A stretch of DNA of 64,000 nucleotides from Balneola sp. (lineage in GTDB: Bacteria; Bacteroidota; Rhodothermia; Balneolales; Balneolaceae), in assembly GCA_003712055.1 (NCBI GenBank), contig RHLJ01000001.1, forward strand, positions 434,001-498,000, read 5' to 3'. Position 1 is the first letter of the stretch. Every line of letters begins with the position of its first letter. Position numbers and translations under genes: made by a program. Below, in pieces: positions 21,270 to 64,000 of the stretch. Under the pieces are notes generated by a model that worked only from the letters and a program-made list of their open reading frames with translations, was not told the DNA's origin and made no database searches.

Positions 21270-21740
21270 TTAGTGAACGAAATACTTTTCTTCTTCCTCT
21301 TTAAATGCTTCCAGAATTACTTCTTTTGTAGTAGAAGAAAGAATTTTTTCTCTGAATGAAGCACTATTCATCAGCCTCGAAATTCTGCTCAACAATTTGA
21401 TATGGTGGCTATGCTTAGAATCAGGGCCTACTAATAGAAAGATGAGCTCTACAGGTTCATTATCAATTGAGTCGTAGTCTAACGGAGTACTTAATTTTGC
21501 AAAGGCAGCATAATTGTCATCAATCGCTTTTGTTTTGCAATGTGGAATCGCAAGTCCTTTGCCCACTCCTGTACTCATAACGAATTCTCTTTCAAACACT
21601 CCTTCCCTAACCTGCTCTAATGCATCTTCATCCATCTTAGAAGAAAGTAGATCAATCATAGAATTAATTACCTGCTTCTTGTTCTCCACTTCTAGATTAG
21701 GAACCACTGTGTCTGCATCAAGTAAAGAAAATAAATTCAT
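21270..21740 (-). CDS. ptsN: PTS IIA-like nitrogen-regulatory protein (PtsN / EIIA-Ntr)
   Basis: A 156-residue IIA fructose/mannitol-fold protein. His67 in GKGLAIPHCKTKAI is the phosphorylation site. The later element PVELIFLLVGPDSKHSHHIKLLSRISRLM matches EIIA-Ntr or PTS-like IIA domains. There are no transport domains, so it fits regulation (potassium, nitrogen or stress) rather than sugar uptake. No HPr or EI gene is in the window. It is first in the ptsN-dacB-regulator-folD run; sharing a run with a sigma-54 activator is suggestive, as PtsN and RpoN are linked in other bacteria. Confidence 0.85.
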   Translation of the reverse strand: MNLFSLLDADTVVPNLEVENKKQVINSMIDLLSSKMDEDALEQVREGVFEREFVMSTGVGKGLAIPHCKTKAIDDNYAAFAKLSTPLDYDSIDNEPVELIFLLVGPDSKHSHHIKLLSRISRLMNSASFREKILSSTTKEVILEAFKEEEEKYFVH

Positions 21741-49125: not shown

Positions 49126-51537
49126 TCAGTTTAATGTGAGTGAACTCCAAATGCCTTCTTTTTGAATGACAGGAATATGAATATCAATGGTTACACCCTT
49201 TCCTAACTCGGCCTCGAGGTTAAATTTACCACCTAATAGTTTTACCCTGTTCTCCATATTCTCCAAACCGTAACTATCCTGCCTTATACTTTCTGCTTCA
49301 ATAATGCTGGTATCAAATCCTACCCCGTTATCTTTGATCATCACATTCAATTGATTTTCTTCATCCAGGTCTAATTCTAATTCAATAAGCTCCGCTCTGG
49401 AATACTTAAGTGAATTACTTAAAGCCTCTTGAATAATCCTATATACATTCATCTCCACAAGATTATCAAGTTTCCTGTCCAGTTCAATTCTACTATTTAT
49501 CTCGATACCAAGCTTAGTAATTTTGGATAGCAGGGTCTCCAAATCCCTGGTCAAACCCTCACCAGAGGAAGTACCTTCTTTCATTTCCTTTATTAATGCA
49601 CGAACCTCTTTAAATGCATCATCCAAAAACTGATTTCCTTCAGTAAATGAAGGAAGCAATTCGGGCTGCTTTTCCTTGATATCTTCGTTTAAGGAACTAA
49701 AGTATAGTTTTACCAAAGAAAGAATACTTCCGAGGCGATCATGTAGTTCTGCAGCAAGCCTTTTTCGTTCTTTATCTTGCCCTTCCATCATTGCCGAAAT
49801 TGATTCCAGGCGCTGTTTATCTAACAAGGAGTCAATCTGGTTTTGATAAAGTGTTTCTTTTTGTGCTGAGATAATCCTCTTTTTCCTACTTCTATACTGA
49901 AACCAGGCGATGATCCCTATTACCGTACCCAGTAACGAGAATACACTAATTATAAGTGCTCTATTTTCAGCATTCCTTCGTTCAATTACCGCCTGATCCT
50001 CGGCGTTTTGAGCCCTTAAAACCTGATTCTGCGCCTCTATTTTTTCTGTTTCATATTCCGTGATTAACTCTTCAATAGCCTTTATTCGAGCAAGGTTTAC
50101 GAGGCTGTCTTTATATGCATCATAAAGTAGCTGAAAGTTATATGCGTTCTCGAAATCATTAACATCAGCGTATAGCTCAGCCAATCCAAATGATGCACTT
50201 CGCTGAATTTCTAAATACTCCGATTCGTCTGCATATTGAAGACTCCTTAAATAGTAGTTCTCCGATTGAATGGCGTTTCCCAAATAGAAATAGGTCGCAC
50301 CCAAATTATTATACACCTCAGCCAGCTTACGATGATCTTCTAATTCTTCGTACAAAGTTCCAGCCTCTAATAGGTAATCTCGTGCCTGCCTGTACTCCTT
50401 TTTTTGATTGAATAACACCCCAAGATTACTCAGAATATTTGCTCTTCGACCAGAATTATTGGTTCCTTCGACCATTTCTAGAGCCCTGTTGTAATATTTA
50501 AGCGCTGAGTCGGGTTCACTAATTTCATCAAATACTTTTCCAAGATTCTGGAAGACTTCTCCCTTTCCCTGAGGATCATCAAACTGAGTATATACCCGAA
50601 AAGCTTCTCTAAAATATTGAATGGCCTCTTCGAAATATTCTTGCTTTTCGTATACCACTCCAATGTTTAGATATTTTGAAGCCAACAGTTTACCGTCTTC
50701 CGGGCTTGATATAAGTGCAAGCTCTAAACTGGCTAGGTAATTGGATAGCGCGTTGTCATATTGTCCCCAATCGAAGTACAGATTACCAATATTATTTATC
50801 ACCATCGATAGTCCAATAGTATCTTCTGAAGCGGTTTTTATCTCTTTAAATCGTTCATAATATACCAGTGCATTTTGATAGTCGGCTTCCCCTGCAAGCC
50901 AGTTACCCATATTTAATAACGCACTTGAAAGATAGCGCTCATCTCCCAGTGTTTCTCGTATGTCAATACTGGTTTGATAACTGGCATAAGCCGAATCAGA
51001 GCTCCCATGTGCCCTATATGCATTTCCAAGATTATTAAATGATCCGGCTACTCCTCTCATATCTCCAAATGCCCTTTTCAGGCTAATACTTTGTCGGTAG
51101 TAGCCGATAGCTTCATCATACCTACCTGTGCCCCGATATAATAGTCCAATTCTGTTATAGGAATCAGCCAGTTGCTGCTGATTCCCCTTTTTCTTGCTAA
51201 GCTCGATTGCTCTCAGAAAAAAGGTTTCTGATTCATTCGTTTTACCCTGCCTGCGATATATCAAGCCAAGCAAGTCAGCCATTTCTTCATGCAGAGGAGT
51301 ATTTAATCCCAGGTTTTGTATGGAAAACCATGCTTCGTTTGCATAATAAGCAGCAGAATCTAATCGGGATGGATAAAACTCATCTGCTTTTTGAGCCTGA
51401 TACTCGATCTGAGATAAATCTTGTGCGAATAATGCCACTGGCATAACCAGCAACACTATCCCCCATATTACTCTTAAAGCCCTTGAGATGAATACTCCCC
51501 CTAATGATAAAGGGTTACTCTTCTTCGGCTTCATCAT
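49126..51537 (-). CDS. Tetratricopeptide-repeat sensor histidine kinase (HisKA_3 type)
   Basis: An 803-residue sensor kinase. An N-terminal membrane or signal segment (about 14-38, ALRVIWGIVLLVMPVALF) leads to a periplasmic or cytoplasmic array of about nine TPR units (about 50-480; repeated ALxNxGN, YYxRALE elements such as SYNRIGLLYRGTGRYDEAIG). A coiled coil and one clear membrane helix (about 522-545) follow, then the dimerisation domain with phosphoacceptor His in AAELHDRLGSILS and a HATPase domain (NSLKYSRAELIELELDLDEE, NGVGFDTSII, YGLENMENRVKLLGG). The topology suggests sensing through TPR contacts. It overlaps the small acidic gene by 23 bp. Confidence 0.92.
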   Translation of the reverse strand: MMKPKKSNPLSLGGVFISRALRVIWGIVLLVMPVALFAQDLSQIEYQAQKADEFYPSRLDSAAYYANEAWFSIQNLGLNTPLHEEMADLLGLIYRRQGKTNESETFFLRAIELSKKKGNQQQLADSYNRIGLLYRGTGRYDEAIGYYRQSISLKRAFGDMRGVAGSFNNLGNAYRAHGSSDSAYASYQTSIDIRETLGDERYLSSALLNMGNWLAGEADYQNALVYYERFKEIKTASEDTIGLSMVINNIGNLYFDWGQYDNALSNYLASLELALISSPEDGKLLASKYLNIGVVYEKQEYFEEAIQYFREAFRVYTQFDDPQGKGEVFQNLGKVFDEISEPDSALKYYNRALEMVEGTNNSGRRANILSNLGVLFNQKKEYRQARDYLLEAGTLYEELEDHRKLAEVYNNLGATYFYLGNAIQSENYYLRSLQYADESEYLEIQRSASFGLAELYADVNDFENAYNFQLLYDAYKDSLVNLARIKAIEELITEYETEKIEAQNQVLRAQNAEDQAVIERRNAENRALIISVFSLLGTVIGIIAWFQYRSRKKRIISAQKETLYQNQIDSLLDKQRLESISAMMEGQDKERKRLAAELHDRLGSILSLVKLYFSSLNEDIKEKQPELLPSFTEGNQFLDDAFKEVRALIKEMKEGTSSGEGLTRDLETLLSKITKLGIEINSRIELDRKLDNLVEMNVYRIIQEALSNSLKYSRAELIELELDLDEENQLNVMIKDNGVGFDTSIIEAESIRQDSYGLENMENRVKLLGGKFNLEAELGKGVTIDIHIPVIQKEGIWSSLTLN

Positions 51538-51871
51538 ATTTGGTTACTGTACTACCTTCATCCTCAGGATCATCTAGCCAAACCGTAACTTTTATCTGGG
51601 TATCAGGAGCTACTTTATTTTCAGGTGTGGGCAATGAAACTACCAATGGCACTACTTCCCATTGCTCTGAAGGATTTTTCTTTGGCCCATCAACATCTAC
51701 ATTAACCTGTACAAGTTTAGGATTTTCTATACTGATGGATGGCTGCTGAGATATTTTGTAATTCTTAGGAATGAATACAGCTATCCACAAAGAGTATTCA
51801 TTGGAAGTATTTTTTGTTAATCGAATATATGGTTTCAGAAGGCCCAACGATTGATCTGATTTTGAACTCAT
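51515..51871 (-). CDS. Hypothetical small acidic protein upstream of the histidine kinase
   Basis: A 118-residue soluble protein with no signal or membrane segment. It is strand-rich with alternating hydrophobic and polar residues (YSLWIAVFIPKNYKISQQPS, NVDVDGPKKNPSEQWEVVPLV) and a very acidic C-terminus (DDPEDEGSTVTKYDEAEEE). No family recognised. It overlaps the TPR kinase start by 23 bp on the same strand, so the two are probably expressed together; a role as a third, regulatory component of the two-component system is inference. Confidence 0.7.
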   Translation of the reverse strand: MSSKSDQSLGLLKPYIRLTKNTSNEYSLWIAVFIPKNYKISQQPSISIENPKLVQVNVDVDGPKKNPSEQWEVVPLVVSLPTPENKVAPDTQIKVTVWLDDPEDEGSTVTKYDEAEEE

Positions 51872-52095
51872 GACAGCAAATTTTATTAAGATTGAAGTGA
51901 TTTAGAAAAGCATATCTCTAGAATACCACAAAAGGGCTACCCATAAATACACCTTTTAGTGATGCCTTTAATATCAATTGAAGACAACTTTCTACCCGAT
52001 AGAGTTAACATACTATCCAGCAACTTTGATTACAAATCAAGATTAATAAAAGGCGTGTGAACAAGAAATTATTTTTTTAAGCGATAGAGCTTTCT

Positions 52096-52121
52096 GAATA
52101 GAGACAGAAAGAATAGAGACA
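52096..52121 (+). repeat. Short direct repeat of GAATAGAGACA
   Basis: GAATAGAGACA occurs at 52096-52106 and 52111-52121, separated by GAAA, a 15-bp period that would place both copies on nearly opposite faces of the helix. It may be a binding-site pair; function unknown. Confidence 0.4.
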
Positions 52122-52143
52122 AACATAGATTTCAATGTCCTTC

Positions 52144-52180
52144 ATTACCACCGAGGATGAATTCCGGGTGGTAATTTTTT
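52144..52180 (+). terminator. Terminator-like hairpin with T-run on the plus strand, no gene upstream
   Basis: ATTACCACC (52144-52152), 14-nt loop, GGTGGTAAT (52167-52175), followed by TTTTT. On the plus strand this is a fair rho-independent terminator, yet the plus strand has no gene upstream before 48367. It may end an unannotated small RNA or be a remnant. Confidence 0.45.
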
Positions 52181-52198
52181 ATAAAGATTTCCCGCACG

Positions 52199-52238
52199 TT
52201 AATGGTTATTGGTGAATCTCCTTTCCAATAACCATTAA
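52199..52238. repeat. 14-bp perfect inverted repeat
   Basis: TTAATGGTTATTGG (52199-52212), 12-nt spacer, CCAATAACCATTAA (52225-52238). It is far above chance. It lies about 70 bp beyond the EF-G stop codon on the minus strand, so it could end that transcript (no T-run on either strand) or be a structural RNA or regulator site. Confidence 0.6.
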
Positions 52239-52306
52239 CTAGTAACAAATAAGCTATTAAACAATTGTTGTGCTATGATCTATCTTACTTCATACACTTA
52301 ATTACC

Positions 52307-54433
52307 TCATGCTTCTTCTAACTCCAGGTTTTCCTGTATCACCCGTTCCTGGATATCAAACGGAACCTGGGCATAATGGGAAAAACTTCTTGAATAAGTG
52401 GCACTACCTTGGGTCATAGACTTAAGCCGGGTTGAATAGTGATCCAATTCTTCTAAAGGAACATGAGCCTTAATCTTTTGAAGTGAACCTTCTGCATCCA
52501 TTCCCTGGATCTGTCCCCGACGTGTGCCAAGGTCGCTCATCACATCCCCCATATAATCTGAGGGTACGGTTACTTCGATTTCGTATACAGGCTCCATTAA
52601 CCTTGGATTTGCCTGTAGGAAACCATCGCGGAATGCCATACGGGCTGCAGTTTTGAAAGCTGCTTCGTTGGAATCAACGGAGTGCATCGATCCATCATAC
52701 ACAGAAACTCGAATGTCCCTGGCTCTACAACCACTCATTGGTCCATTCTCCATCTTTTCCATAATTCCCTTTACAATTGCAGGCATAAAGCGATTATCGA
52801 TCACACCCCCAACTATGCAGTTCTGGAATACAAGCTTCCCTCCCCATGATAATTCATGGTCTTCTCTGTTTCTGACTTTCATATCAACAGGATCTGGCAT
52901 TCCTTCTTCAAAAGGCTCAATCAGGAAATGAACTTCGGCATACTGCCCGGCTCCCCCAGACTGTTTCTTGTGCTTGTATCTAGTTTTAATTGGAGAGCCA
53001 ATCGTTTCCCGATAAGGTATTCGGGGGGTAATGAACTCAATATCCAGATGAAACCTATTGGTAAGGGCGTGTTCTATAGTATTTAGATGCTCCTCACCTT
53101 GTCCATGTATAATTATTTGTTTCAGTTCCTGGCTGTGTTCAATTACTACGGATGGGTCTTCACGATGAATCTGATGGAGGGCATTGCCCAATTTATCTTC
53201 ATCTCCTTCTTTCACTAATTTAACTGCCGTTCGGATAGTTGTAGCCGGAAAATGAATAGGATCCAGTTTTACATCATTACCTTTTTCATGAAGTGTATCA
53301 TTCACCTCACTGTCCTTGAGCTTTACAACCGCTCCTATATCTCCCGTTTTAACTTCGGCAATTTCAATGCGCTTATGCCCTTCGGTTAGGTAGAGATTTC
53401 CAAGGCGCACCGTATTGGAGTTACTTTCATTTACCAAATCCATTCCAGCCAGAACTGAGCCACTATATACTTTAAAATATATCAGATCACCAACATGAGA
53501 CTCGGAATGGGTTTTAAATAGAAACATGACTGGTTTTCCATCCGGATTCATGACGAAGTCGTCTCCTGCTTCGGTTTTTGGAGAAGATACTTCAAGAGGA
53601 TTAGGAGCCACATCATCTATAAAACCCATGATTCTACCCGTACCCATATTCCTTGATGCACATGCACAGAAAAGCGGATAAATTTGTTGTTTTACTAAGG
53701 ACAAATGAAGTCCTTTTTGCATTTGTTCTTCGTCCAGTTCTCCATGCTCGAAATAGATATCCATTAAGGTCTCATCATTTTCGGCAATTACTTCTACCAG
53801 CTCCTGGTGTAATCGTGATGCTCGCTCCTGCTCAGATTCAGGAATAGGAAGTTTATCGGGCTTACCTCCTCCTTCAGGAAATTCATACATTGTCATTCTT
53901 AGCACATCAATAATGGCATGGAAATCCCCTCCCTCACTAAAGGGGTACTGAACTACCGTTACTTCTCGGCCAAAGTGTTCTTTTGCTTCATCCACAGCCT
54001 TCCAAAAATCAGACCGTTCATTATCCAGTTTGTTAACCACAAACATAGAAGGGGTTTGATACTTTTGTGTGTATTTCCATAGAGAATCGGTTGCGACTTC
54101 TACCCCGTTTTCTGCATTAAGTGTAAAAATTGCTGTATCTGCGACCCGTAATGCTCCTACTACTTCCCCTATATAATCAGAGGTTCCCGGAGTATCGATT
54201 AGGTTAATTTTGTGTCCCCTCCAGTCTAAATTCATAAATGATGCGAAAATCGATTTACCTTTCTCTTTTTCCTGCTGATGGTAATCTGATACCGTATTTT
54301 GATCTTCAATAGTTCCTCGTCGATTGGTGGCTCCGGACTCAAACAACATAGTCTCAGCGAGTGTTGTTTTACCGGAGCCTGAATGACCCAACAGTACAAC
54401 ATTTCGGATGCGGGTAGGATTATATACTTTCAT
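52307..54433 (-). CDS. Elongation factor G-like protein (EF-G type II, FusA2-like)
   Basis: A 708-residue translational GTPase with all EF-G domains. G1 is GHSGSGKT at 16-23, G3 DTPG at 80-83 followed by TSDY, and G4 NKLD at 134-137; domains II to V follow (about 290-700). Canonical EF-G has AHIDAGKT and DTPGHVDF; here the His after DTPG, which helps GTP hydrolysis, is Thr. This matches the EF-G-2 or FusA2-like subfamily, whose members have weak or specialised translocation or recycling roles. A standard EF-G is expected elsewhere. GGAG sits near the start codon. The gene is divergent from ansA. Confidence 0.88.
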   Translation of the reverse strand: MKVYNPTRIRNVVLLGHSGSGKTTLAETMLFESGATNRRGTIEDQNTVSDYHQQEKEKGKSIFASFMNLDWRGHKINLIDTPGTSDYIGEVVGALRVADTAIFTLNAENGVEVATDSLWKYTQKYQTPSMFVVNKLDNERSDFWKAVDEAKEHFGREVTVVQYPFSEGGDFHAIIDVLRMTMYEFPEGGGKPDKLPIPESEQERASRLHQELVEVIAENDETLMDIYFEHGELDEEQMQKGLHLSLVKQQIYPLFCACASRNMGTGRIMGFIDDVAPNPLEVSSPKTEAGDDFVMNPDGKPVMFLFKTHSESHVGDLIYFKVYSGSVLAGMDLVNESNSNTVRLGNLYLTEGHKRIEIAEVKTGDIGAVVKLKDSEVNDTLHEKGNDVKLDPIHFPATTIRTAVKLVKEGDEDKLGNALHQIHREDPSVVIEHSQELKQIIIHGQGEEHLNTIEHALTNRFHLDIEFITPRIPYRETIGSPIKTRYKHKKQSGGAGQYAEVHFLIEPFEEGMPDPVDMKVRNREDHELSWGGKLVFQNCIVGGVIDNRFMPAIVKGIMEKMENGPMSGCRARDIRVSVYDGSMHSVDSNEAAFKTAARMAFRDGFLQANPRLMEPVYEIEVTVPSDYMGDVMSDLGTRRGQIQGMDAEGSLQKIKAHVPLEELDHYSTRLKSMTQGSATYSRSFSHYAQVPFDIQERVIQENLELEEA

Positions 54434-54470
54434 GGCGAACTCCGTTTTTGATTGCTGATTATTTTAGAAA

Positions 54471-54483
54471 AGAAAAGCGCTTT
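54471..54483. promoter_or_regulatory. AGAAAAGCGCTTT motif upstream of ansA
   Basis: A 13-mer with a palindromic core (AAAGCGCTTT), also present exactly once at 58170-58182 upstream of the ammonium transporter. It lies 14 nt before the ansA TATATTTG element, about where a -33 box would be. I saw no third copy in the window. Confidence 0.45.
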
Positions 54484-54496
54484 CATATTTTGCGCT

Positions 54497-54504
54497 TATA
54501 TTTG
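54497..54504 (+). promoter_or_regulatory. -7 promoter element TATATTTG for ansA
   Basis: An exact TAnnTTTG match, RNA start predicted near 54508, leader about 69 nt. No TTTG -33 box; the palindromic motif at 54471-54483 covers that place, which would fit activator-dependent transcription. Confidence 0.45.
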
Positions 54505-54576
54505 TCAATGAACATGCTGAACATTCGTGAAGAGAATGTGAAGCGTTAAGTTAATCGACTGGAGCAAAGAATCAAG

Positions 54577-55569
54577 ATGAAAAAAATCCTCATTATTCAA
54601 ACCGGAGGAACCATCGCCATGAGCGCTAAAGGTGAAGGCGTTGAGTTGGATCCCGAAGCCTGGTCTGAAACCCTATATCAGCGAATTGAAGGACTGAATG
54701 AACTGGCCGAAATTACTACCGTTCCTCTTTTCTTTGAAGACAGCTCCGACCTAAACCGAGAACATTGGACTGAACTAGCCCGCTGTATCGAAGAACATTA
54801 TGATGCTTATGATGGCTTCGTAATTCTCCACGGAACCGATACTATGGCCTTTACTGCCTCTGCCCTTTCTTTCAGCCTGATCAATCTGTCCAAACCGGTT
54901 ATTTTAACCGGAAGCCAGGTTCCTTTAAGTAATATCAGAAGTGATGCCCGTCGAAATTTCATTAATGCAATCGAAATAGCTACTACTAAAATCAATGAAG
55001 TAGCTATTTGTTTTAATGATCATGTCTATCGCGGCAACAGAGCTACCAAAACGAGTATTGGAGATTTTGATGCTTTTGGCTCTCCAAATTTTCCTGAATT
55101 GGCAGAAATTGGATTGGAAGTAGAACTCAATATTTCTCCTATTTCAGGAGAACATCCCTTTAGTGTTCTTCCATCATTTGACAATTCGGTGCTGGTACTA
55201 AATGTATTTCCTTCATTAAACACCAACTACCTAATGGCATTGGAACTTTCAAAACTAAAAGCAATCATCGTTCGATCATTTGGTAGCGGAAATTTCCCAA
55301 TGAAAGGTGAGTATAGTCTCCTCCCTTTCTTTGAAAAATGCAGAGAGCATGGAGTGATTGTGGTGCTCCTCTCACAGGCCGATTATGATGCCGTTAATCT
55401 TACCAAATACCCAGCCGGTAGAGCTGCTCTTAAGGCTGGAGCAATTTCCGGTGCCGACATGACACTTGAAGCTGCTCTTACAAAAATGATGTGGCTACTG
55501 GGCAACTATGAAGACAAAGGAATCATTGAGAAACTATTTCAACAAAGCCTGGCCGGAGAGTTAAGCTGA
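54577..55569 (+). CDS. ansA: Type I (cytosolic) L-asparaginase
   Basis: Hydrolyses L-asparagine to aspartate and ammonia. The 330 residues have both family signatures: TGGTIAM at 9-15 with the nucleophile Thr12, and HGTDTMAFTASALSFSL at 85-101 with the second Thr and Asp. No signal peptide is present, which favours the cytosolic type I enzyme. The region EVAICFNDHVYRGNRATKTS with the catalytic Lys is intact. It is divergent from the EF-G-like gene and would release ammonia, complementing the amt transporter further on. Confidence 0.94.
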   Translation: MKKILIIQTGGTIAMSAKGEGVELDPEAWSETLYQRIEGLNELAEITTVPLFFEDSSDLNREHWTELARCIEEHYDAYDGFVILHGTDTMAFTASALSFSLINLSKPVILTGSQVPLSNIRSDARRNFINAIEIATTKINEVAICFNDHVYRGNRATKTSIGDFDAFGSPNFPELAEIGLEVELNISPISGEHPFSVLPSFDNSVLVLNVFPSLNTNYLMALELSKLKAIIVRSFGSGNFPMKGEYSLLPFFEKCREHGVIVVLLSQADYDAVNLTKYPAGRAALKAGAISGADMTLEAALTKMMWLLGNYEDKGIIEKLFQQSLAGELS

Positions 55570-55570
55570 G

Positions 55571-55598
55571 TGAACATTGAACATTGATCATTGTACAA
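55571..55598 (+). repeat. Degenerate 7-bp tandem repeat after ansA
   Basis: Four consecutive heptamers TGAACAT, TGAACAT, TGATCAT and TGTACAA follow the ansA stop codon directly. The pattern may be a short microsatellite; similar wording (TGAACATGCTGAACAT) occurs upstream near 54509. Confidence 0.5.
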
Positions 55599-55654
55599 TG
55601 CCTTTCAAATCTTACCTCTTAATTCCTTGTTCTTTATTCTTACCTAAACATCCC

Positions 55655-56683
55655 TCAAGGTATCCTCTTATCCATCAGAAAAAACCAAAGCGGAGGTAAT
55701 AGTGCAGCCAGGATCATAGCAGGATAACCTGCAGGGAGTTGGGGTGAATCTTCATGGTGATCTAATATCTGGTACTTCTTACTTGCTATATAATGATGAT
55801 CGGAATGGCGAGTAAGTTCATATAGTACAATTCGTCCAAAACTATGATTGGAATTCCAGGAATGCTTGGGTAGTACTTTTTCATATCGGCCATTTTCAAG
55901 CTTCTTTCTTCTTAACCCGTAGTGCTCAAGGTAATTGATGGTTTCAAGAAGCAACAAACCAATCACTCCTGCTAACAACACATAGAGCATATTTGGATAT
56001 CCTGTAAAAAAATAAATCAGCCAGATATAGCCAATCTGTGAAAAGGTGAATAACAGCATGGTATTATCAATAGAGAACACTCCTTGCTTATTTTTTCTCA
56101 GACGATCTGCTTCAATCTTCCATGCACTGGAATACCCTAAAAAAGTTGATTTCAACCAGAAGAAATAAAGCCCCTCCCCTTTCTTGGCGCTGGCAGGATC
56201 AAGATCAGTCCCAACATGTTTGTGATGGCCTCTGTTATGCTCTACAAAGAAATGGACATAAAGCGCTGGAAGAAGCAAAAGCTGCGAAGTTAAATGATCA
56301 ATCTTCGAAGTCCGATGCCCCAATTCATGGCCTACATTGATACCGCATGTTCCAATCACAATACCTACTGATATAAGGTTACCAGCCATTTCGAAACCAG
56401 TCATTGGAACTGTATTTAACTGATAGATAAAATAACCTAACACAAAGTACAGAATGGGAAGGTTGAGATATAACAACCAATCAAATAACCGACGTTTCAA
56501 AAATTCGGCTTGCTCATTTATTGAAACGTTCTCCTCTGAAATGGGACTAAACTGATCAATGATAGGAACAAGTACGAATACAAAAATCACATTCATGAAC
56601 GTATAGCCCCCTCCTAACCATAGCCCAAGCACTGTTAGAGTGGGATTTATATAAGCAGCTAGATATTTGAGGTCTTTGATCAT
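55655..56683 (-). CDS. alkB: AlkB-type alkane 1-monooxygenase
   Basis: An integral-membrane non-heme di-iron hydroxylase that puts oxygen on the terminal carbon of n-alkanes. From ATG 56683 it has 342 residues. All four histidine elements are present: HELGHR at 119-124, EHNRGHHKHVGTDLDPAS at 148-165, NYLEHYG at 250-256 and RHSDHH at 292-297. Six or so membrane helices surround them. An ATG at 56728 adds 15 residues that do not fit the family start. No rubredoxin or rubredoxin reductase gene is adjacent, so electron donors must be encoded elsewhere. Fatty acid or sterol desaturase-like roles are less likely. Confidence 0.9.
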   Translation of the reverse strand: MIKDLKYLAAYINPTLTVLGLWLGGGYTFMNVIFVFVLVPIIDQFSPISEENVSINEQAEFLKRRLFDWLLYLNLPILYFVLGYFIYQLNTVPMTGFEMAGNLISVGIVIGTCGINVGHELGHRTSKIDHLTSQLLLLPALYVHFFVEHNRGHHKHVGTDLDPASAKKGEGLYFFWLKSTFLGYSSAWKIEADRLRKNKQGVFSIDNTMLLFTFSQIGYIWLIYFFTGYPNMLYVLLAGVIGLLLLETINYLEHYGLRRKKLENGRYEKVLPKHSWNSNHSFGRIVLYELTRHSDHHYIASKKYQILDHHEDSPQLPAGYPAMILAALLPPLWFFLMDKRIP

Positions 56684-56794
56684 GACTGGCCTTAATTTAA
56701 TTGGAGTGGGTCTACATATCAACGACAAGCTGTTCCGTCCAGTTGAAATGTCTACTCATTTTAGTATTATCAGCCAGCAATCCGGCCTTCTGAC

Positions 56795-57508
56795 ATGTAT
56801 TTTATTTTTGATCTAGAAACTATTCCTGATATCGAATTTATTCGAACTGTACTTCATGATGATAAATCAGATGAAGAGCTGCTATTAGAAAAAGCCAGTG
56901 AAGAACTGGCAAGAAATAAATCCGGTTTCCTTCCACCTATGTACCATCGCATGGTTTCCTGGGTAGGTTTATGGATCGAAAATACTGGTCAGCCCCGACA
57001 AAAAGTCGCCTGGAATGGAACTGATGAGAAAGAAGGACTTCAGAAAATCTTCGAGACTATAGGTACCTATAAAGACTTTGGACTAATTCATCACAATGGA
57101 AAAGGCTTTGATATTCCCGTTCTCACCTATCGAGCTATGAAACACGGCCTACAAATGCCTGTCCGAATGAGTGATTACGATATCCGGTATCGATATAGCA
57201 AACATAACCTGGATTTGGTGGATGAGTTCAGTAACTATGGAGCCAGCTCCTGGCCTAAGCTAAAACATCTTGGACAACTTATTGGCATTCCCTTCAAGCA
57301 AACAGGCGAAGGAAACCAGGTGTATGAGATGTTCAAAAGAAATGAATTACCGCTCATTGAGCATTATTGTTATGAAGATGTAATGGCTACCTATATCGTC
57401 TGGCTTTACTACCAATTCACAGCTGGGCATATCCCAGAAGATCAGTTTACGAATTTGAGAGAAAGAGCCCTCCAGAACCTTAATCAGATACAGAAAAATA
57501 ACTCTTAA
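56795..57508 (+). CDS. 3'-5' exonuclease of the PolB-exo-like family
   Basis: A 237-residue DnaQ-like nuclease. The N-terminus IFDLETIPDIEF holds the Exo I Asp6 and Glu8; LIHHNGKGFDIPVLTYRAM near 95-113 is Exo II with Asp; and the C-terminal EHYCYEDVMATYIVW has the Exo III Tyr-x3-Asp pattern. This fits the predicted PolB-exonuclease family (DNA_pol_B_exo2), which acts alone. It is transcribed divergently from alkB and followed by a lipoprotein gene after one base. Its substrate and partners are unknown. Confidence 0.86.
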   Translation: MYFIFDLETIPDIEFIRTVLHDDKSDEELLLEKASEELARNKSGFLPPMYHRMVSWVGLWIENTGQPRQKVAWNGTDEKEGLQKIFETIGTYKDFGLIHHNGKGFDIPVLTYRAMKHGLQMPVRMSDYDIRYRYSKHNLDLVDEFSNYGASSWPKLKHLGQLIGIPFKQTGEGNQVYEMFKRNELPLIEHYCYEDVMATYIVWLYYQFTAGHIPEDQFTNLRERALQNLNQIQKNNS

Positions 57509-57509
57509 G

Positions 57510-58121
57510 ATGAATATTAAAATTACCTCTATTCTAGTTTTAGCTTCTCTTTTTTTAATCTATTGCACAACTACTAAGATAGATTCGCAGGTAATGGCTC
57601 CGAACTTTGATCAAAAAGTAACAAACCTATTTTATGTGATTAATCTCCAGGATAAAATGGAAAAAACTGTTCCGACCCTTGTTGATAAATCCAAGTCGAT
57701 TTACACTGAAAATGGATTCCCATTTAATCATGAAGAATATACTTTCTTTAGTGAAAGAGGGACGTTTACACTTGAGAATATGGTTATTAGTGCTAAGGAA
57801 AAGAATTTCGATTTCTTTCTAATTCTTTTGGAAACTGACCATGACAGAGAAACATATTTTTCTGGCCCCACAGTGGGGGCTAATGGTATGTTCGTAGGAG
57901 GAAGTACATCAAAAACAATCAAGCATGGTCTGGAAGCCTACTTATATACAGTCTCTGATACTACAGAAATATGGAGAGCAAAAATTGAGGTTACAAGTGG
58001 TGATTATGGTAATTCTACTCAAACAGGTAATTCATTAGCCAAAGGAGTAATTGAAAGGCTTTTAAGTGATGGGCTTCTACCTTCAGGCTTTACCATACCT
58101 TCTGAATGGGATGAATATTAA
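57510..58121 (+). CDS. Hypothetical lipoprotein
   Basis: A 203-residue exported protein: signal KITSILVLASLFLIYC with lipobox LIYC. The mature part has a mixed alpha/beta pattern, with VTNLFYVINLQDKMEKTVPT, FDFFLILLETDHDRET and a Gly-rich loop (GPTVGANGMFVGGSTSKT) before SGDYGNSTQTGNSLAKGVIE. It loosely recalls DUF4136-like periplasmic proteins, but I would not assign it. It lies one base after the exonuclease gene, so the two may be one transcript. Confidence 0.66.
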   Translation: MNIKITSILVLASLFLIYCTTTKIDSQVMAPNFDQKVTNLFYVINLQDKMEKTVPTLVDKSKSIYTENGFPFNHEEYTFFSERGTFTLENMVISAKEKNFDFFLILLETDHDRETYFSGPTVGANGMFVGGSTSKTIKHGLEAYLYTVSDTTEIWRAKIEVTSGDYGNSTQTGNSLAKGVIERLLSDGLLPSGFTIPSEWDEY

Positions 58122-58169
58122 AAAACCCACACTACTTAGTTAATTAGAAAAAGTCAATGTTTATTTTCC

Positions 58170-58182
58170 AGAAAAGCGCTTT
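58170..58182. promoter_or_regulatory. AGAAAAGCGCTTT motif upstream of amt
   Basis: Exact copy of the 13-mer at 54471-54483; here AAAAGCGCTTTT is a perfect 12-bp palindrome. It lies 114 bp before the amt start. It could be a site for a nitrogen-responsive regulator. Confidence 0.45.
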
Positions 58183-58295
58183 TTATATTATTTATCCTTA
58201 ATTATTTAGGAATAATAAAAAATAGACTAAAGTTTTTTTGTCTATCTACCCCTATACTCCCAACGCCTAATCGCAATTAATTTGGAGTACAATCG

Positions 58296-59594
58296 ATGAA
58301 AAAACTCGCAGCTACCCTAATGCTGTTATTTTTAGGGACAATCTCACTTTACGGGCAAGAAACAGAAACAGCTATTAATGCAGGTGATACTGCATGGCTT
58401 CTTATTGCAACTGCTCTCGTTATGCTTATGACCCCCGCCGGCCTTGCTCTTTTCTATGGCGGATTAACCCAAAACAAACACGTACTCAATACAATAGGTA
58501 TGAGCTACATGGCATTTTGTACCGGTACTATTGTATGGGTAGTAGTGGCCTATTCCCTCGCTTTTGGAGAAGGAAATGCCTTTATAGGCGACTTGAGCAA
58601 TGTCTTTTTAAAAGGAATTGGCGTGAATGATGTTTCTGGAAGCATCCCCACTCTTCTCTTTGTGGTTTTCCAGGGAACCTTTGCGGCTATTGCAGTTGCT
58701 ATTGTTAGCGGCTCAATTATTGAACGGGTACGCTTTTCAACATGGGGAATTTTCTCTGTTCTCTGGGTAATTGCTGTTTATTCTCCAATCGCACACTGGG
58801 TTTGGGGAGGTGGATTCCTAAGTGAATCTGGTGAAATGGACTTTGCAGGTGGAACAGTAATTCATATTAATGCTGGTGTTGCTGGCCTTGTACTTTCATA
58901 TCTGGTCGGTAAACGAATGGAGCATAGTCTTGAGGAAATAAGAAAACCCTCCTCTATTAAATTTATGATTCTCGGATCTGCCCTTCTCTGGTTTGGTTGG
59001 TTTGGATTCAATGGCGGTAGCCAGCTTGCTGCAGATGGAATTGCTGCTAATGCATTATTGGTAACCAATGTTGCAGCCTGTGCCGGTGCTCTTATCTGGT
59101 TAACTATTGAATGGTTTATTGTTAAGAAACCAACACTAATTGGTATGGCATCAGGTGCGGTTTCAGGCCTGGTTGGGATTACCCCTGCTTCAGGTTTTGT
59201 GGATGTAAGTGGTGCACTTGTTATTGGAGTCGTTTCCGGTTTAGTTGGATACTGGGGTGTTGTTCATCTCAAATCATGGGTTCGCCATGATGATACCCTG
59301 GATGCTTTCGGTATTCACGGATTAGTAGGTATAGCCGGAGCTATCCTAACAGGTGTATTTGCTAACCCTGAGATCAATGGCGGAGCTGGAGCACTCTATG
59401 GAAATGTTGGCCAGATTTGGGTTCAAACAAAAGCAGTACTAATTACCATTGCTTATTCTGCAGTAGCTACATTCATTGTGTGGAAAGTCGCGTCCTTAAT
59501 TACTTCCGGTGGTAGAATTACTGAAAACCTGGAGCTAGAAGGAATGGATATTGGATACCATGGTGAGAAGCACATGGATATCGAAACCGAATAA
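58296..59594 (+). CDS. amt: Ammonium transporter (Amt family)
   Basis: A 432-residue homotrimeric ammonium channel. A signal-like N-terminus (about 1-21) precedes eleven membrane helices. The conserved twin histidines are His190 (GGTVIHINAG) and His341 (DAFGIHGLVG), and the APIAHWVWGGGF-like segment gives IAHWVWGGGF near 165-174. A GGAG site lies 9 nt before ATG 58296. No glnK/glnB gene follows, unlike many bacteria, so regulation by PII must come from elsewhere. The long, AT-rich 174-bp leader region contains the AGAAAAGCGCTTT motif. A terminator follows. Confidence 0.95.
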   Translation: MKKLAATLMLLFLGTISLYGQETETAINAGDTAWLLIATALVMLMTPAGLALFYGGLTQNKHVLNTIGMSYMAFCTGTIVWVVVAYSLAFGEGNAFIGDLSNVFLKGIGVNDVSGSIPTLLFVVFQGTFAAIAVAIVSGSIIERVRFSTWGIFSVLWVIAVYSPIAHWVWGGGFLSESGEMDFAGGTVIHINAGVAGLVLSYLVGKRMEHSLEEIRKPSSIKFMILGSALLWFGWFGFNGGSQLAADGIAANALLVTNVAACAGALIWLTIEWFIVKKPTLIGMASGAVSGLVGITPASGFVDVSGALVIGVVSGLVGYWGVVHLKSWVRHDDTLDAFGIHGLVGIAGAILTGVFANPEINGGAGALYGNVGQIWVQTKAVLITIAYSAVATFIVWKVASLITSGGRITENLELEGMDIGYHGEKHMDIETE

Positions 59595-59616
59595 TTTGCT
59601 CTCTCAATAACTCCTT

Positions 59617-59650
59617 AAAGCCTGTTGCCTATCAGTAACAGGCTTTTTTT
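59617..59650 (+). terminator. Intrinsic terminator of amt
   Basis: AAAGCCTGTT (59617-59626), 10-nt loop, AACAGGCTTT (59637-59646), and a T-run to 59650. The T-run overlaps the stop codon of the convergent oxidoreductase gene. Confidence 0.85.
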
Positions 59651-61130
59651 ATACAATCCGGTCAGGATCGCTGAAGTCAGGAATCTCTCCTCTATAGCCA
59701 AACACTTTTTTGATCAGCTTTACTGACCACTCACTTTGGTTCTTGATATACCATTGATCCGCAGCTCTTCGTGCTCCAAGGCTCCAGCTTGGATAAGGAT
59801 GGATCGTATCAGCAATCCCCCTCATGCTTACTCCATTCTTCATCGCAAGCGCATATTCCGAGATAAATTCACCAGCATGAGCACCAACTACAGAAGCACC
59901 ATAAATCTTGCCCGAAAGTTTATTGGCATAAATCTTTATTAATCCCGTTGCTTCACTTTCTGTTAAGGCTCGATCAATTTTGGAATATGGGAAACGATAG
60001 GTCTCAAAACTCACCCCTTGCTCTTCCAGTTGAGTTTCTGTCTTTCCTACATGGGCTAACTCTGGTTCAGTGAAGGTAACCCAGGGCACATTCTTTTCAT
60101 CAATTTTCATTGGAAGTTTTAGTAAGGCACTTGTGGTGGCAACTTTTGCGGTATGCTCACTCATATGAGTAAACTGGTACCGACCATTTACATCACCAAT
60201 TGCATAAATATGGCTCACATTGGTCTGACAGGAATCATCTACTGAAATACCCTTTCTGTCGAAGTTGACCCCTGCTTTCTCCAGGTCAAGCGTTTCAATA
60301 TTCGGCTTTCTACCAGTGGCTATAAGTAAATGAGTTCCGAAAATTACTTTCGCTTCTCCGTTTTGAACCACATGTACTTCTACCCTTTCCTCATTTTTAA
60401 CTACCGTTTTTATGGATGATTCCATTTCGAAAACGACCCCTTGTGATTGCAGCTCGCTCATTAAAATTTCTACAAGCTCTTCATCATCATTTCTCATGAT
60501 ACGATCGGCCATATCAATCACAGTAACTTTGGAACCCAAACTGGAAAAGGCCTGACTCATTTCCGTACCAATTGGCCCTCCACCAATTATCAATAGCTCT
60601 TCGGGAAGATTCTCGATCTCAAAAAGAGATTCGTTGGTTAAATGCTCCACTTCTTCCAATCCCTCGATAGGTGGAACTGAAGCAGAAGCTCCACTAGCAA
60701 TAAAAAAATACCTGGAAGAAACTTTCCGAGAACCTCCTTGAGCCAGTTGGACATCTATTGTATGTGCATCAATAAAACTCGCCTCTCCAAATACTACCTC
60801 TACCCCTTGATCTTCATAAATCTTTGGATCATCCGCATCTTCATAAACTTCATCCCTTATTTTATGAACATGTTCTATTACTTTTTTAAAATCGACAACA
60901 GGTTCAGTATCAACTAATCCGAATTTAGAAGCTTCTTTTATTTGCCGAACTACTTTACCCGCTTTAAGAAGTACTTTACTAGGTACACATCCAGTCCATG
61001 TACAATCACCACCTAATCGATGGCGCTCAATCATCATGGTCTTAGCACCTATATTGGCAGCAATACCTGAAGCTGTTAGCCCTGCGGCTCCACCTCCAAT
61101 TACTACAGCATCATATTCATATTTCGACAT
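59649..61130 (-). CDS. Mercuric-reductase-like pyridine nucleotide-disulfide oxidoreductase
   Basis: A 493-residue FAD/NAD(P)-dependent flavoprotein. FAD binding is GGGAAGLTA at 12-20, the redox disulfide pair is Cys43 and Cys48 in GGDCTWTGCVPSK, NAD(P) binding is IIGGGPIGTEMSQAFSSLGSK and the second FAD site is IYAIGDVNGRYQFTHMSEHTAK. Near the C-terminus the usual HPHPTLSE dimer active-site motif reads HPYPSWSLG, so the base His is kept but the Glu is Leu. No N-terminal HMA domain or C-terminal vicinal cysteines are present, so mercury reduction is unlikely; the true substrate is unknown. It has a near-consensus promoter. Confidence 0.88.
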   Translation of the reverse strand: MSKYEYDAVVIGGGAAGLTASGIAANIGAKTMMIERHRLGGDCTWTGCVPSKVLLKAGKVVRQIKEASKFGLVDTEPVVDFKKVIEHVHKIRDEVYEDADDPKIYEDQGVEVVFGEASFIDAHTIDVQLAQGGSRKVSSRYFFIASGASASVPPIEGLEEVEHLTNESLFEIENLPEELLIIGGGPIGTEMSQAFSSLGSKVTVIDMADRIMRNDDEELVEILMSELQSQGVVFEMESSIKTVVKNEERVEVHVVQNGEAKVIFGTHLLIATGRKPNIETLDLEKAGVNFDRKGISVDDSCQTNVSHIYAIGDVNGRYQFTHMSEHTAKVATTSALLKLPMKIDEKNVPWVTFTEPELAHVGKTETQLEEQGVSFETYRFPYSKIDRALTESEATGLIKIYANKLSGKIYGASVVGAHAGEFISEYALAMKNGVSMRGIADTIHPYPSWSLGARRAADQWYIKNQSEWSVKLIKKVFGYRGEIPDFSDPDRIV

Positions 61131-61159
61131 AAAGAACTCCGGTCTTAGTTTAAGCGTGA

Positions 61160-61190
61160 CAAATATATCGTTCGCTTTTCCTCAACCAAA
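61160..61190 (-). promoter_or_regulatory. Near-perfect Bacteroidota promoter of the oxidoreductase gene
   Basis: On the minus strand TTTG (61187-61190), exactly 19 nt, then TATATTTG (61160-61167), matching the TTTG-N19-TAnnTTTG consensus in full. RNA would begin near 61156, a leader of about 26 nt. It supports the Bacteroidota-like assignment. Confidence 0.72.
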
Positions 61191-61209
61191 ACCAGAGATC
61201 GATTGTTTA

Positions 61210-63879
61210 CTAATTTGTTATAAATTCAGCTTTTTTTTTGAAGCTCCCGTGTTTGATTACTGATTGTGCTATTGCCAGGTGAGCTATTGGCACTCTATAT
61301 GGCGAGCACGATACATAGTCCATTCCTAGTTTATAGCAGAAATCTATACTAGCAGGATCACCTCCATGCTCACCACAAATTCCAATCTTTAGGTCAGGAT
61401 TGGAAGCGTGTCCAAGCTCAGTACCCATATGAACAAGTTGCCCGACACCATCCTTATCTAAGGTCTGAAATGGGTCATCTTTCAGGATACCTTCTTCCAG
61501 GTAATGAGGGATAAATTTTGCGGCGTCATCTCTACTATAGCCTAGTGCCATCTGGGTTAGATCATTCGTTCCAAATGAGAAAAACTCCGCCTCTTTAGCT
61601 ATTTGATTAGCTACTAAAGCTGCCCTGGGTACTTCAATCATAGTTCCAATTTTGAAACTTAGTCGATCTTTGAACTCACCAAATACTTGCTCAGCTGTTT
61701 GCTCAACAATGGCACGCTGATTTATGTATTCCCTTACGTTTCCTACTAAAGGAATCATGATTTCGGGAATAACGGTTACTCCTTCTTTCTTTAGCTCCAG
61801 AGCAGCCTCGATGATCGCTCTAGTCTGCATTTCTGTAATTTCAGGATGTGTGATCCCCAATCGACATCCGCGGTGTCCAAGCATTGGGTTGAATTCCCTT
61901 AGAGCTGTTACTTTCCGTTTCAGTACTTCTACGCTTATTCCCAAATCATCTGCTACTTCTTTGATTTCACTTTTGCTTTGAGGTAAAAACTCGTGAAGAG
62001 GCGGATCAAGTAACCGAACTGTCACCGGTAACCCATCCATTACTCTGAAAATGCCTTTGAAGTCTTCCTTCTGGAAAGGAAGAATTTTATTCAAAGCCCT
62101 GGTACGCTCTTCGGTAGTTTCAGCTACAATCATTCGGCGCATTGCAATAACCCGATCATCTTTAAAGAACATGTGCTCGGTACGAGCGAGGCCTATACCC
62201 TTGGCACCAAGTTTTCTTGCAAGCGAAGCATCTTCCGGAGTTTCGGCATTGGCGCGGACATCTATTTTTTCGAATCCGGATACCCAACGCATAAAGGTTT
62301 CATATTCCTCGCTTAATACAGGAGGGTGCATATTATGCTGTCCCAACATGATCATGCCTCGAGTACCATCAATTGAAATCCAGTCGCCCTCATTCACGGT
62401 TACTTCACCATTTGTGAATGACTTATTCTTATAGTTGATAACAATATCACTACATCCGGCAACACAAGGTTTGCCCCAACCGCGAGCCACTACAGCTGCA
62501 TGTGAGGTCATTCCTCCACGAGATGTCAGTATTCCCTCAGCTGAAGACATGCCACCAACATCTTCCGGGCTGGTTTCAATGCGAACCAGAATCACCATTT
62601 CTCCAGCTTCAGCAGCTTTTTCTGCCTTTTTACTGGAGAAAACTACCTTACCAACAGCTGCACCAGGAGATGCTGGTAATCCTTTTCCAAGTATTTCCTC
62701 TTCCTTAAAATCATCCACCGAGAATTGAGGATGCAGTAGCTGCTCAATATGCTCCGGCTCAACAAGTGTACTTATAGCCTCTTCTTTCGATAGTACATCC
62801 TGGTTCACTAAATCGACAGCGATCTTTACAGCTGCAGTTCCGGTTCTTTTTCCGTTTCTGGTCTGCAAGATATAAAGCACCCCCTCCTGCACAGTGAATT
62901 CAATATCCTGCATGTTTTTATAATGTCCTTCCAGTTTGCTTGTGTACCTGAAAAGTTCGTCATACACATTAGGCATCTGCCTTTTCATTTTTTGAATTGG
63001 CTGTGGAGTACGGATACCTGCTACAACGTCTTCTCCCTGTGCATTCACAAGGTATTCACCATACAGTTCGTGCTCTCCGGTAGATGGATTTCGAGTGAAA
63101 CAAACACCAGTAGCACTGTTCTCTCCCATATTTCCATACACCATGGCCTGCACATTTACCCCGGTACCAGCAAGACCTGTAATATGGCTAATCTCTCTGT
63201 ATTTAATGGCTCTACCACTGTTCCAGGATGAAAACACTGCATTGATGGCGAACTTTAATTGCTCAACAGGATCTTCAGGAAACATATGGCCTGAATGTTT
63301 ACGATAAATAGCTTTGTATCGATCTGTTAGAATTTTTAGATCATTGGCTGAAAGCTCTATATCCTCTTTCACATTCACCTGTTCTTTAAGGTGCTCAATT
63401 GCTTCTTCAAAATGTTCGTGAGCTACCCCCATAACAACATCTCCAAACATATCTATAAAGCGACGATAGCTATCATACACAAAGCGTTCGTTCCCTGTCT
63501 TTTTGATCAGTGCTTCAACAACGGTATCGTTTATACCCAGATTCAATATCGTATCCATCATCCCTGGCATAGAAACAGCAGCTCCGGATCGAACCGAAAC
63601 CAATAAAGGATTTACCGGATCCCCAAATTTGGTTCCTGTTTCTTTCTCTATGTGATGGATTCCATCCAGTACTTGATCATATAACTCCTCTGGCCAAACC
63701 ATTGCATGTTCAATGGTATACTGGCATGCTTCTGTTGATATGGTAAATCCCGGTGGGACGGGAACTCCAATGTTACACATTTCGGCGAGGTTCGCTCCTT
63801 TACCTCCAATTAGTTCGCGCATCGTTCTATTACCGTCAGTCTTCTTTCCAAACCGGTACACAAAGTGTTTTTCTTGCAT
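61210..63879 (-). CDS. ppdK: Pyruvate phosphate dikinase
   Basis: Interconverts pyruvate + ATP + Pi and phosphoenolpyruvate + AMP + PPi. The 889 residues show the nucleotide-binding domain (about 1-340; LIGGKGANLAEMCNIGVPVP), the phosphohistidine domain with His460 in GGMTSHAAVVARGWGKPC, and the PEP-binding barrel (about 530-889) ending CGEHGGDPASIDFCYKLGMDY with the catalytic Cys region. It is full length and normal for bacteria. It stands as a single minus-strand gene upstream of the oxidoreductase; no PPDK regulatory protein (DUF299) is adjacent. Confidence 0.96.
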   Translation of the reverse strand: MQEKHFVYRFGKKTDGNRTMRELIGGKGANLAEMCNIGVPVPPGFTISTEACQYTIEHAMVWPEELYDQVLDGIHHIEKETGTKFGDPVNPLLVSVRSGAAVSMPGMMDTILNLGINDTVVEALIKKTGNERFVYDSYRRFIDMFGDVVMGVAHEHFEEAIEHLKEQVNVKEDIELSANDLKILTDRYKAIYRKHSGHMFPEDPVEQLKFAINAVFSSWNSGRAIKYREISHITGLAGTGVNVQAMVYGNMGENSATGVCFTRNPSTGEHELYGEYLVNAQGEDVVAGIRTPQPIQKMKRQMPNVYDELFRYTSKLEGHYKNMQDIEFTVQEGVLYILQTRNGKRTGTAAVKIAVDLVNQDVLSKEEAISTLVEPEHIEQLLHPQFSVDDFKEEEILGKGLPASPGAAVGKVVFSSKKAEKAAEAGEMVILVRIETSPEDVGGMSSAEGILTSRGGMTSHAAVVARGWGKPCVAGCSDIVINYKNKSFTNGEVTVNEGDWISIDGTRGMIMLGQHNMHPPVLSEEYETFMRWVSGFEKIDVRANAETPEDASLARKLGAKGIGLARTEHMFFKDDRVIAMRRMIVAETTEERTRALNKILPFQKEDFKGIFRVMDGLPVTVRLLDPPLHEFLPQSKSEIKEVADDLGISVEVLKRKVTALREFNPMLGHRGCRLGITHPEITEMQTRAIIEAALELKKEGVTVIPEIMIPLVGNVREYINQRAIVEQTAEQVFGEFKDRLSFKIGTMIEVPRAALVANQIAKEAEFFSFGTNDLTQMALGYSRDDAAKFIPHYLEEGILKDDPFQTLDKDGVGQLVHMGTELGHASNPDLKIGICGEHGGDPASIDFCYKLGMDYVSCSPYRVPIAHLAIAQSVIKHGSFKKKAEFITN

Positions 63880-64000
63880 AATAAACCTCTAAATAGTTGG
63901 TTTAGATTTCCTCGAGTGAAGAGCGGGAGCACAGAGCGCCTGCTCGAAATACTCAACCTAAGTATTCAAAACGCTTATGAAGATATGATGTAGAAGAACC
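63880..64000. other. Right-edge 121 bp upstream of ppdK, nothing assigned
   Basis: It contains a GC-rich imperfect hairpin (GAGCGGG...CCTGCTC near 63921-63945) and no open frame or promoter consensus. It may hold the ppdK leader. Confidence 0.4.

What the first reader, a model, noticed from the sequence alone, without database searches (positions are those of the whole stretch)
54471..58182. Shared 13-bp palindromic motif upstream of ansA and amt
Seen: AGAAAAGCGCTTT at 54471-54483 and at 58170-58182, each in the non-coding region before an ammonia-releasing enzyme and an ammonia channel; I saw no other copy. A 13-mer shared by two such short regions is unlikely by chance even in AT-rich DNA. 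In ansA it takes the -33 place before TATATTTG. Inference: a binding site for a nitrogen-responsive regulator.
Basis: partly seen in the sequence, partly recalled or inferred. Interest (0 to 1): 0.52.

Follow-up and report, generated by a model that had tools for sequence, protein, structure and literature searches.

The report
LacI-type operator for nitrogen genes
The short repeated DNA word in front of an asparaginase gene and an ammonium channel gene is a real, conserved regulatory switch site, found across an order of bacteria in front of nitrogen, amino-acid and central-metabolism genes, and it is probably bound by an undescribed LacI-family regulator that sits beside a purine-synthesis gene.

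Summary
In detail: AGAAAAGCGCTTT occurs exactly twice in the window, before ansA and amt. Inside it is a palindrome, AAAGCGCTTT (ansA) or AAAAGCGCTTTT (amt). Genome-wide the 10-mer occurs 15 times (reversed control 3), 10-11 of them non-coding, before amt, ansA, gltB, glnA, gdhA, thrC, a peptide transporter and a 2-oxo-acid dehydrogenase E2. In 84 Balneolales genomes the 12-mer occurs 448 times against 29 for the control. Of 76 upstream sites read in 12 genomes, 32 precede nitrogen-assimilation, amino-acid or peptide genes, 9 2-oxo-acid dehydrogenase genes, 13 central-carbon genes and 22 others.

Best candidate regulator: one LacI-family protein (CcpA/PurR-like, next to purC). Its recognition helix is invariant in 43 of 43 syntenic orthologs read. 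Genomes without it (10 of 84) have background motif counts (11 sites, control 6); those with it have 437 (control 23). One genus with an altered helix is also at background. Lrp, the first alternative, is present everywhere and has a different motif.

This is a new lineage's global LacI regulon; nothing was shown by experiment.

The parts
54471..54483 (+). 13-mer AGAAAAGCGCTTT before ansA; operator core AAAGCGCTTT at 54474-54483
   Evidence: same place (-102/-104) with core AAGCGCT in 9 of 12 near-relative ansA loci
54497..54504 (+). candidate -7 box TATATTTG of the ansA promoter; starts about 19 bp after the operator centre, so the operator covers the -33 position and no TTG is present there
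   Evidence: read; the column block ATTTG is conserved or nearly so in A2
54577..55569 (+). ansA, type I asparaginase (330 aa)
   Evidence: NCBIfam TIGR00519, 287.9 bits, above the 260.5 cut-off
52307..54433 (-). divergent EF-G-like GTPase gene; less likely to be the target because its distance to the site varies in relatives while ansA's does not
   Evidence: (not family-tested; name from the sequence read)
58170..58182 (+). 13-mer AGAAAAGCGCTTT before amt; perfect 12-bp palindrome AAAAGCGCTTTT at 58172-58183
58196..58210 (+). CCTTAATTATTTAGG, a second, different palindrome resembling the CCTAA-N5-TTAGG box that is conserved upstream of lrp in relatives; candidate Lrp site
58296..59594 (+). 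amt, ammonium transporter (432 aa)
   Evidence: NCBIfam TIGR00836, 412.6 bits, above the 343.3 cut-off

Best explanation
The word is the operator (consensus AAAAGCGCTTTT) of a global LacI-family transcription factor of the order Balneolales. In this genome that factor is P0002 (338 aa, G000:C1:44438-45451, outside the window), encoded next to purC and divergent from a phytoene-synthase-like gene. A dimer would bind the palindrome through the invariant recognition helix VAISTVSRV. It would set transcription of ammonium uptake, glutamine/glutamate synthesis and breakdown, asparaginase, peptide uptake, some amino-acid pathways, 2-oxo-acid dehydrogenases and several glycolytic, gluconeogenic and TCA steps, so coordinating carbon and nitrogen flow. 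Shown by computation: the motif, its non-coding enrichment, its neighbours, its conservation and its co-occurrence with the gene. Inferred: physical binding, and regulation. Position hints at a dual mode: about -41 to -48 at a subset of promoters (activator-like or -33 occlusion) and about -31 at ansA (repressor-like). The effector is unknown. The effector domain has a conserved KHAGFTEE-like block. By aligned positions the CcpA residues recalled to hold phospho-HPr, and PurR Arg190 (also recalled), are not kept, so the signal may differ from both.
For: Own genome: 15 AAAGCGCTTT sites against 3 for the reversed control; 11 of 15 non-coding by reading, 10 of 15 by script, in DNA whose coding fraction in the window is 0.95 (binomial P = 1.6e-10 for 10 of 15). 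Order: 448 sites against 29 control in 84 genomes. Ortholog-level hit (E<=1e-80) in 74 of 84: 437 sites, control 23. The 10 without: 11 sites, control 6 (Mann-Whitney one-sided p=5e-6, not corrected for kinship). The losses fall in separate genera (G209 in g17, G012, G015, seven of twelve g6 genomes), plus G004 in the smaller panel. All 12 g6 genomes together lack clear enrichment (16 against 8). The five g6 hits sit elsewhere in the genome and carry GVSTATVSR or GVSVATVSR instead of VAISTVSR, whereas 43 of 43 non-g6 orthologs read have VAISTVSRV and purC downstream. Nearest solved relatives are CcpA (1rzr, 2.3e-43) and PurR. The consensus of strong CcpA sites, TGAAAGCGCTTTCA (PMC3463425, passages), contains this same 10-bp core, and LacI sites are typically even palindromes with central CG, mostly 30-140 bp upstream of starts (PMC4052901 section 9). 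-7 boxes cluster 30-39 bp downstream of the site centre: 11 observed, 2.0 expected.
Against: No binding or expression data. Co-occurrence is partly phylogenetic, and another factor lost in the same genomes could give it. Some genomes keep the gene with hardly any exact sites: G008 1 (control 1), G120 1, G022 1, G031 0. G009 has 3 sites and no ortholog-level hit, but is only 71% complete. G331 lacks the gene yet has 4 sites (control 3). No site lies before the regulator's own gene in this genome. 22 of 76 upstream sites precede unrelated or unassigned genes, and a few sites are coding. The site at amt is poorly conserved in close relatives. The promoter-position result rests on a lax pattern with non-independent orthologous sites.
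Confidence: 0.82

Rival explanations
1. The site is bound by the single Lrp/AsnC-family protein (P0001), a feast/famine regulator of amino-acid metabolism.
For: Targets resemble an Lrp regulon (recalled). The gene is present and highly conserved in 58 of 58 relatives. A degenerate copy lies upstream of lrp in the own genome and GAAAGCGCTTCTC in G014.
Against: Lrp is equally present in genomes with no motif. Its own upstream regions keep a different palindrome, CCTAA-N5-TTAGG.
Confidence: 0.06
2. The site is bound by another LacI paralog (for example P0003 next to amylase-like genes) as a sugar or carbon-catabolite regulator.
For: Six LacI-family genes over the cut-off in the genome; P0003 is also CcpA/RbsR-like.
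Against: P0003-type paralogs (about 33-37% identical to P0002) are present in G012 and G034, which have no enrichment. The other paralogs match sporadically and several sit beside sugar genes.
Confidence: 0.06
3. The site is a nitrogen-specific regulator's box, and the carbon targets are incidental. (This concerns the signal and can hold together with the best explanation's protein.)
For: 16 of 76 upstream sites precede nitrogen-assimilation genes and 16 amino-acid or peptide genes; glutamine synthetases of two unrelated types (GSII in G000, GSIII in G043) both carry it.
Against: 13 of 76 sites precede central-carbon genes and 9 precede 2-oxo-acid dehydrogenases, in several genomes each.
Confidence: 0.25
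4. Chance recurrence of an AT-rich word.
For: The word is short and AT-rich at its ends; the Markov estimate for the 10-mer is about 6 per genome.
Against: 15 seen with strong non-coding bias; 12-mer 448 against 29 across the order; similar position before gdhA, ansA and E2 orthologs.
Confidence: 0.01

Closest known systems
CcpA / cre (Firmicutes)
   Same: LacI family, nearest solved structure; cre strong consensus TGAAAGCGCTTTCA holds the same 10-bp core; global, positive or negative by position (PMC3463425 passages).
   Different: Here A/T, not G/C, at the sixth position from the centre; targets weighted to nitrogen and amino acids; residues aligned to CcpA Arg303/Lys307 (recalled as phospho-HPr contacts) are Ser/Ala; below the NCBIfam ccpA cut-off (175.5 of 442.35 bits).
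PurR (Gammaproteobacteria)
   Same: LacI family, second-nearest structure; global; touches purine and nitrogen-assimilation genes (PMC4052901 section 8); here the gene is linked to purC, and in two genomes a site lies between amt and purB.
   Different: Recognition helix differs; the residue aligned with PurR Arg190 (recalled) is Thr; the regulon is not the purine pathway; below the PurR cut-off (195.3 of 501 bits).
PckR, GapR, GluR (Alphaproteobacteria)
   Same: Lineage-specific global LacI factors over gap, pckA, ppdK and TCA genes; PckR and GapR genes are mostly not clustered with targets; effectors unknown or only proposed (PMC4052901 section 11).
   Different: Those regulons are carbon-centred and their motifs are distinct from one another; here gdhA, gltB, glnA, amt and amino-acid genes are the core. 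Orthology was not tested.
NtrC, NtcA, GlnR, TnrA (known nitrogen regulators)
   Same: Control amt, glnA, gltB and gdhA (recalled).
   Different: Different protein families and different sites (recalled); none was searched for here.

Membership tests
LacI-family transcription factor and operator | N-terminal LacI helix-turn-helix above the Pfam cut-off | tested here: met
   PF00356 68.9 bits at G000:C1:45299-45436, cut-off 27
LacI-family transcription factor and operator | Even palindrome with central CG, mostly 30-140 bp upstream of starts | tested here: met
   12-bp even palindrome; spacings; standard from PMC4052901 section 9, where motifs are 16-22 nt long
LacI-family transcription factor and operator | Gene and motif co-occur across genomes | tested here: met
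   exceptions listed in the Against line
LacI-family transcription factor and operator | Protein binds the site | not testable with these tools
   needs EMSA or ChIP
CcpA equivalog | NCBIfam TIGR01481 score above cut-off | tested here: not met
   175.5 of 442.35 bits
CcpA equivalog | Phospho-HPr contact residues Arg303/Lys307 (recalled) | tested here: inconclusive
   aligned residues Ser/Ala, with an Arg next to one of them
PurR equivalog | NCBIfam PRK10703 score above cut-off | tested here: not met
   195.3 of 501 bits
Lrp operator | Motif tracks Lrp and stands before lrp | tested here: not met
   Lrp in 58 of 58 irrespective of motif; a different palindrome upstream of lrp
Global regulon (more than 15 genes in at least 7 operons, several pathways; PMC4052901 section 8) | Size and diversity per genome | tested here: inconclusive
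   9-11 upstream sites in G000, G043 and G116 cover several pathways; genes per operon not counted

The most novel reading that the evidence does not exclude
Balneolales have placed ammonium uptake, glutamine and glutamate synthesis, amino-acid breakdown and central carbon flux under one LacI-family master regulator of carbon/nitrogen balance, with a new effector type (conserved KHAGFTEE-like block), in place of the known nitrogen-control systems; and genus g6 has kept a relative of the sensor while changing its DNA recognition helix.
Probability: 0.35. Interest if true: 0.68.

Novelty: new member of a known kind. Interest (0 to 1): 0.5.

Why it matters
I found no described nitrogen or global metabolic regulator for Balneolota in the papers searched (only). 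This gives a named candidate protein, its operator and a list of targets, so that carbon/nitrogen control in a whole order becomes directly testable. It would also add a nitrogen-weighted example to the few known global LacI regulators.

Tried and rejected
Lrp was the first candidate because of the target list. It was set aside because its ortholog is in all 58 relatives irrespective of motif, and because its own upstream regions keep another palindrome. Other LacI paralogs were set aside by neighbourhood and by presence in motif-free genomes. A structured RNA in this region: no Rfam match up to E=1 in 50000-64000, nor at gathering score in L029, L030 and L035. The ansA leader hairpin has no pair with changes on both sides. 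Sigma-70 and terminator scans gave nothing above shuffles. Literature: the exact 12-mer was found in one unrelated paper; the 10-mer in 24 papers, of which the relevant ones among the 20 listed were on CcpA cre sites and the LacI survey; Balneola + LacI + regulon, 0 papers; two wider searches gave nothing on point in their listings. A search for CcpA-HPr contact residues gave one listing, not read, so those residues are recalled.

Rows dropped: six ansA loci (L260-L264, L266) whose upstream region is of another kind and lacks the site, and twelve distant ansA hits (L267-L278), were left out of the '9 of 12' count. One of 20 fetched regulator loci (L308) gave no parsed protein. In G011 8 of 9 sites were fetched and in G002 2 of 7; in G005, G023, G014, G018, G001, G116, G043 and G035 all listed sites were read. 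One search scored the thrC site of the own genome as coding because the script took a long TTG-started frame.

Full report
Observation. AGAAAAGCGCTTT is at 54471-54483 and 58170-58182 and nowhere else exactly in the window. The first lies 98 bp (palindrome centre to start codon) before ansA, the second 118 bp before amt. Both proteins are above the NCBIfam cut-offs for type I asparaginase and ammonium transporter. The real unit is a palindrome: AAAGCGCTTT at ansA, AAAAGCGCTTTT at amt.

Genome. The window is part of a 3.63-Mb, 9-contig genome. The 10-mer occurs at 15 places, the reversed control at 3. Reading the neighbours, 11 sites are non-coding: before amt, ansA (divergent EF-G-like gene), gltB, gdhA, glnA (divergent menA), thrC, a 2-oxo-acid dehydrogenase E2, an oligopeptide symporter (divergent small membrane protein), an MFS carrier, a TonB-dependent receptor, and one in the dnaK-tsaD gap. 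Family names come (on this genome's protein or on a cluster representative from a relative), except that EF-G, dnaK and tsaD are names read from sequence. Four are inside genes.

Relatives. The exact 12-mer is in 54 of 58 relatives. In 84 genomes of the order it occurs 448 times, the control 29. Outside the order but inside the class, 32 genomes hold 26 copies. Ninety-one distinct sites were classified in twelve genomes and 76 stand upstream of a gene. Sixteen precede nitrogen-assimilation genes (gdhA, gltB, amt, ansA, glutamine synthetase II and III); 16 precede amino-acid or peptide genes (hisC, thrC, lysine 6-transaminase, 4-hydroxyphenylpyruvate dioxygenase, piperidine-6-carboxylate dehydrogenase, peptide symporter); 9 precede 2-oxo-acid dehydrogenase E1/E2; 13 precede central-carbon or energy genes (pyruvate phosphate dikinase, GTP-PEP carboxykinase, GAPDH, phosphofructokinase, citrate synthase, NqrA, thiolase, aldehyde dehydrogenase, formate-THF ligase, accC-like); 22 precede others, including glucoamylase-like, TonB receptor and unassigned genes (names). 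The categories are mine and were made after seeing the lists. G012 contributes one site, yet has no regulator ortholog; that site is probably chance.

The two window sites in relatives. Before ansA the core AAGCGCT is kept at -102/-104 in 9 of 12 near-relative loci, while the distance to the divergent gene varies, so ansA is the likelier target. Before amt, three relatives (G002, G011, G014) keep only AAAAGCCCTTCC at the homologous place and three (G001, G018, G006) none. Other amt paralogs in G011, G014 and G043 carry perfect sites.

Regulator. Lrp was tested first: its ortholog is in 58 of 58 relatives irrespective of the motif, and its upstream regions share CCTAA-N5-TTAGG in many of them. 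A palindrome with central CG suggests LacI. The genome has six LacI genes over the cut-off. One, P0002, is followed by purC and divergent from a phytoene-synthase-like gene (both names read from sequence). In the 58-genome panel 53 have an ortholog-level hit (E<=1e-106). The five without are G004 (0 motifs), G015 (0), G034 (0), G012 (1) and G009 (3, 71% complete). In the 84-genome panel 74 have a hit with 437 motifs (control 23), and 10 have none with 11 motifs (control 6). Genus g6 as a whole is near background (16 against 8). Its five hits are not at the purC locus and have a different recognition helix, whereas all 43 other orthologs read have VAISTVSRV and purC downstream. Against: G031, G022, G120 and G008 have the gene with 0-1 motifs, and G331 has 4 motifs (control 3) without it.

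How it may work. CcpA and PurR are the nearest solved relatives. The published consensus of strong CcpA sites contains the same ten central bases (PMC3463425, passages seen). In a subset of promoters a -7 box begins 30-39 bp after the site centre (11 observed, 2.0 expected), which would put the site near -41 to -48; at ansA it covers the -33 place. The -33/-7 consensus used is that of Bacteroidota, recalled. This fits a dual regulator but does not prove it. The signal is not known: by alignment, recalled phospho-HPr and purine contact residues are not kept, while a block around KHAGFTEE is conserved in the orthologs and in the g6 relatives. These are inferences.

What is known. The comparative survey of LacI regulons names CcpA, PurR, FruR, PckR, GapR and GluR as global regulators; its abstract, sections 8, 9 and 11 and searched passages were read, and its Bacteroides group is a single taxonomic group. 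None of the passages read mentions Balneolota. The present case is a further global LacI regulon in a new lineage with unusual weight on nitrogen and amino acids. No binding or expression data exist here.

Noticed in passing
L114-L143 (upstream of lrp); window 58196-58210: A conserved palindrome CCTAA-N5-TTAGG stands upstream of lrp in many relatives and a close copy stands next to the LacI-type site before amt; likely the Lrp autoregulatory and target site.
   Followed up: partly
window 54505-54576; L249-L259: The ansA leader is unusually well conserved (block ...GAACATTCGTGAA..GAATGTGAAG...), with a possible 5-bp hairpin but no pair changed on both sides.
   Followed up: partly
L041 (G000), L176 (G043): Glutamine synthetases of two unrelated types (GSII and GSIII) occupy the same place, divergent from a menA gene, each with the operator between.
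   Followed up: partly
L225, L299-L302: Genus g6 holds a 56-58% identical LacI protein at another locus with an altered recognition helix but the same effector-domain signature; its own motif is unknown.
   Followed up: no
window 21270-21740: A PTS EIIA (PtsN-like) protein by sequence read; could link to carbon/nitrogen signalling.
   Followed up: no
L035 about 1329-2216: An operator in a roughly 890-bp gap between dnaK and tsaD with no clear gene after it and no Rfam match.
   Followed up: partly
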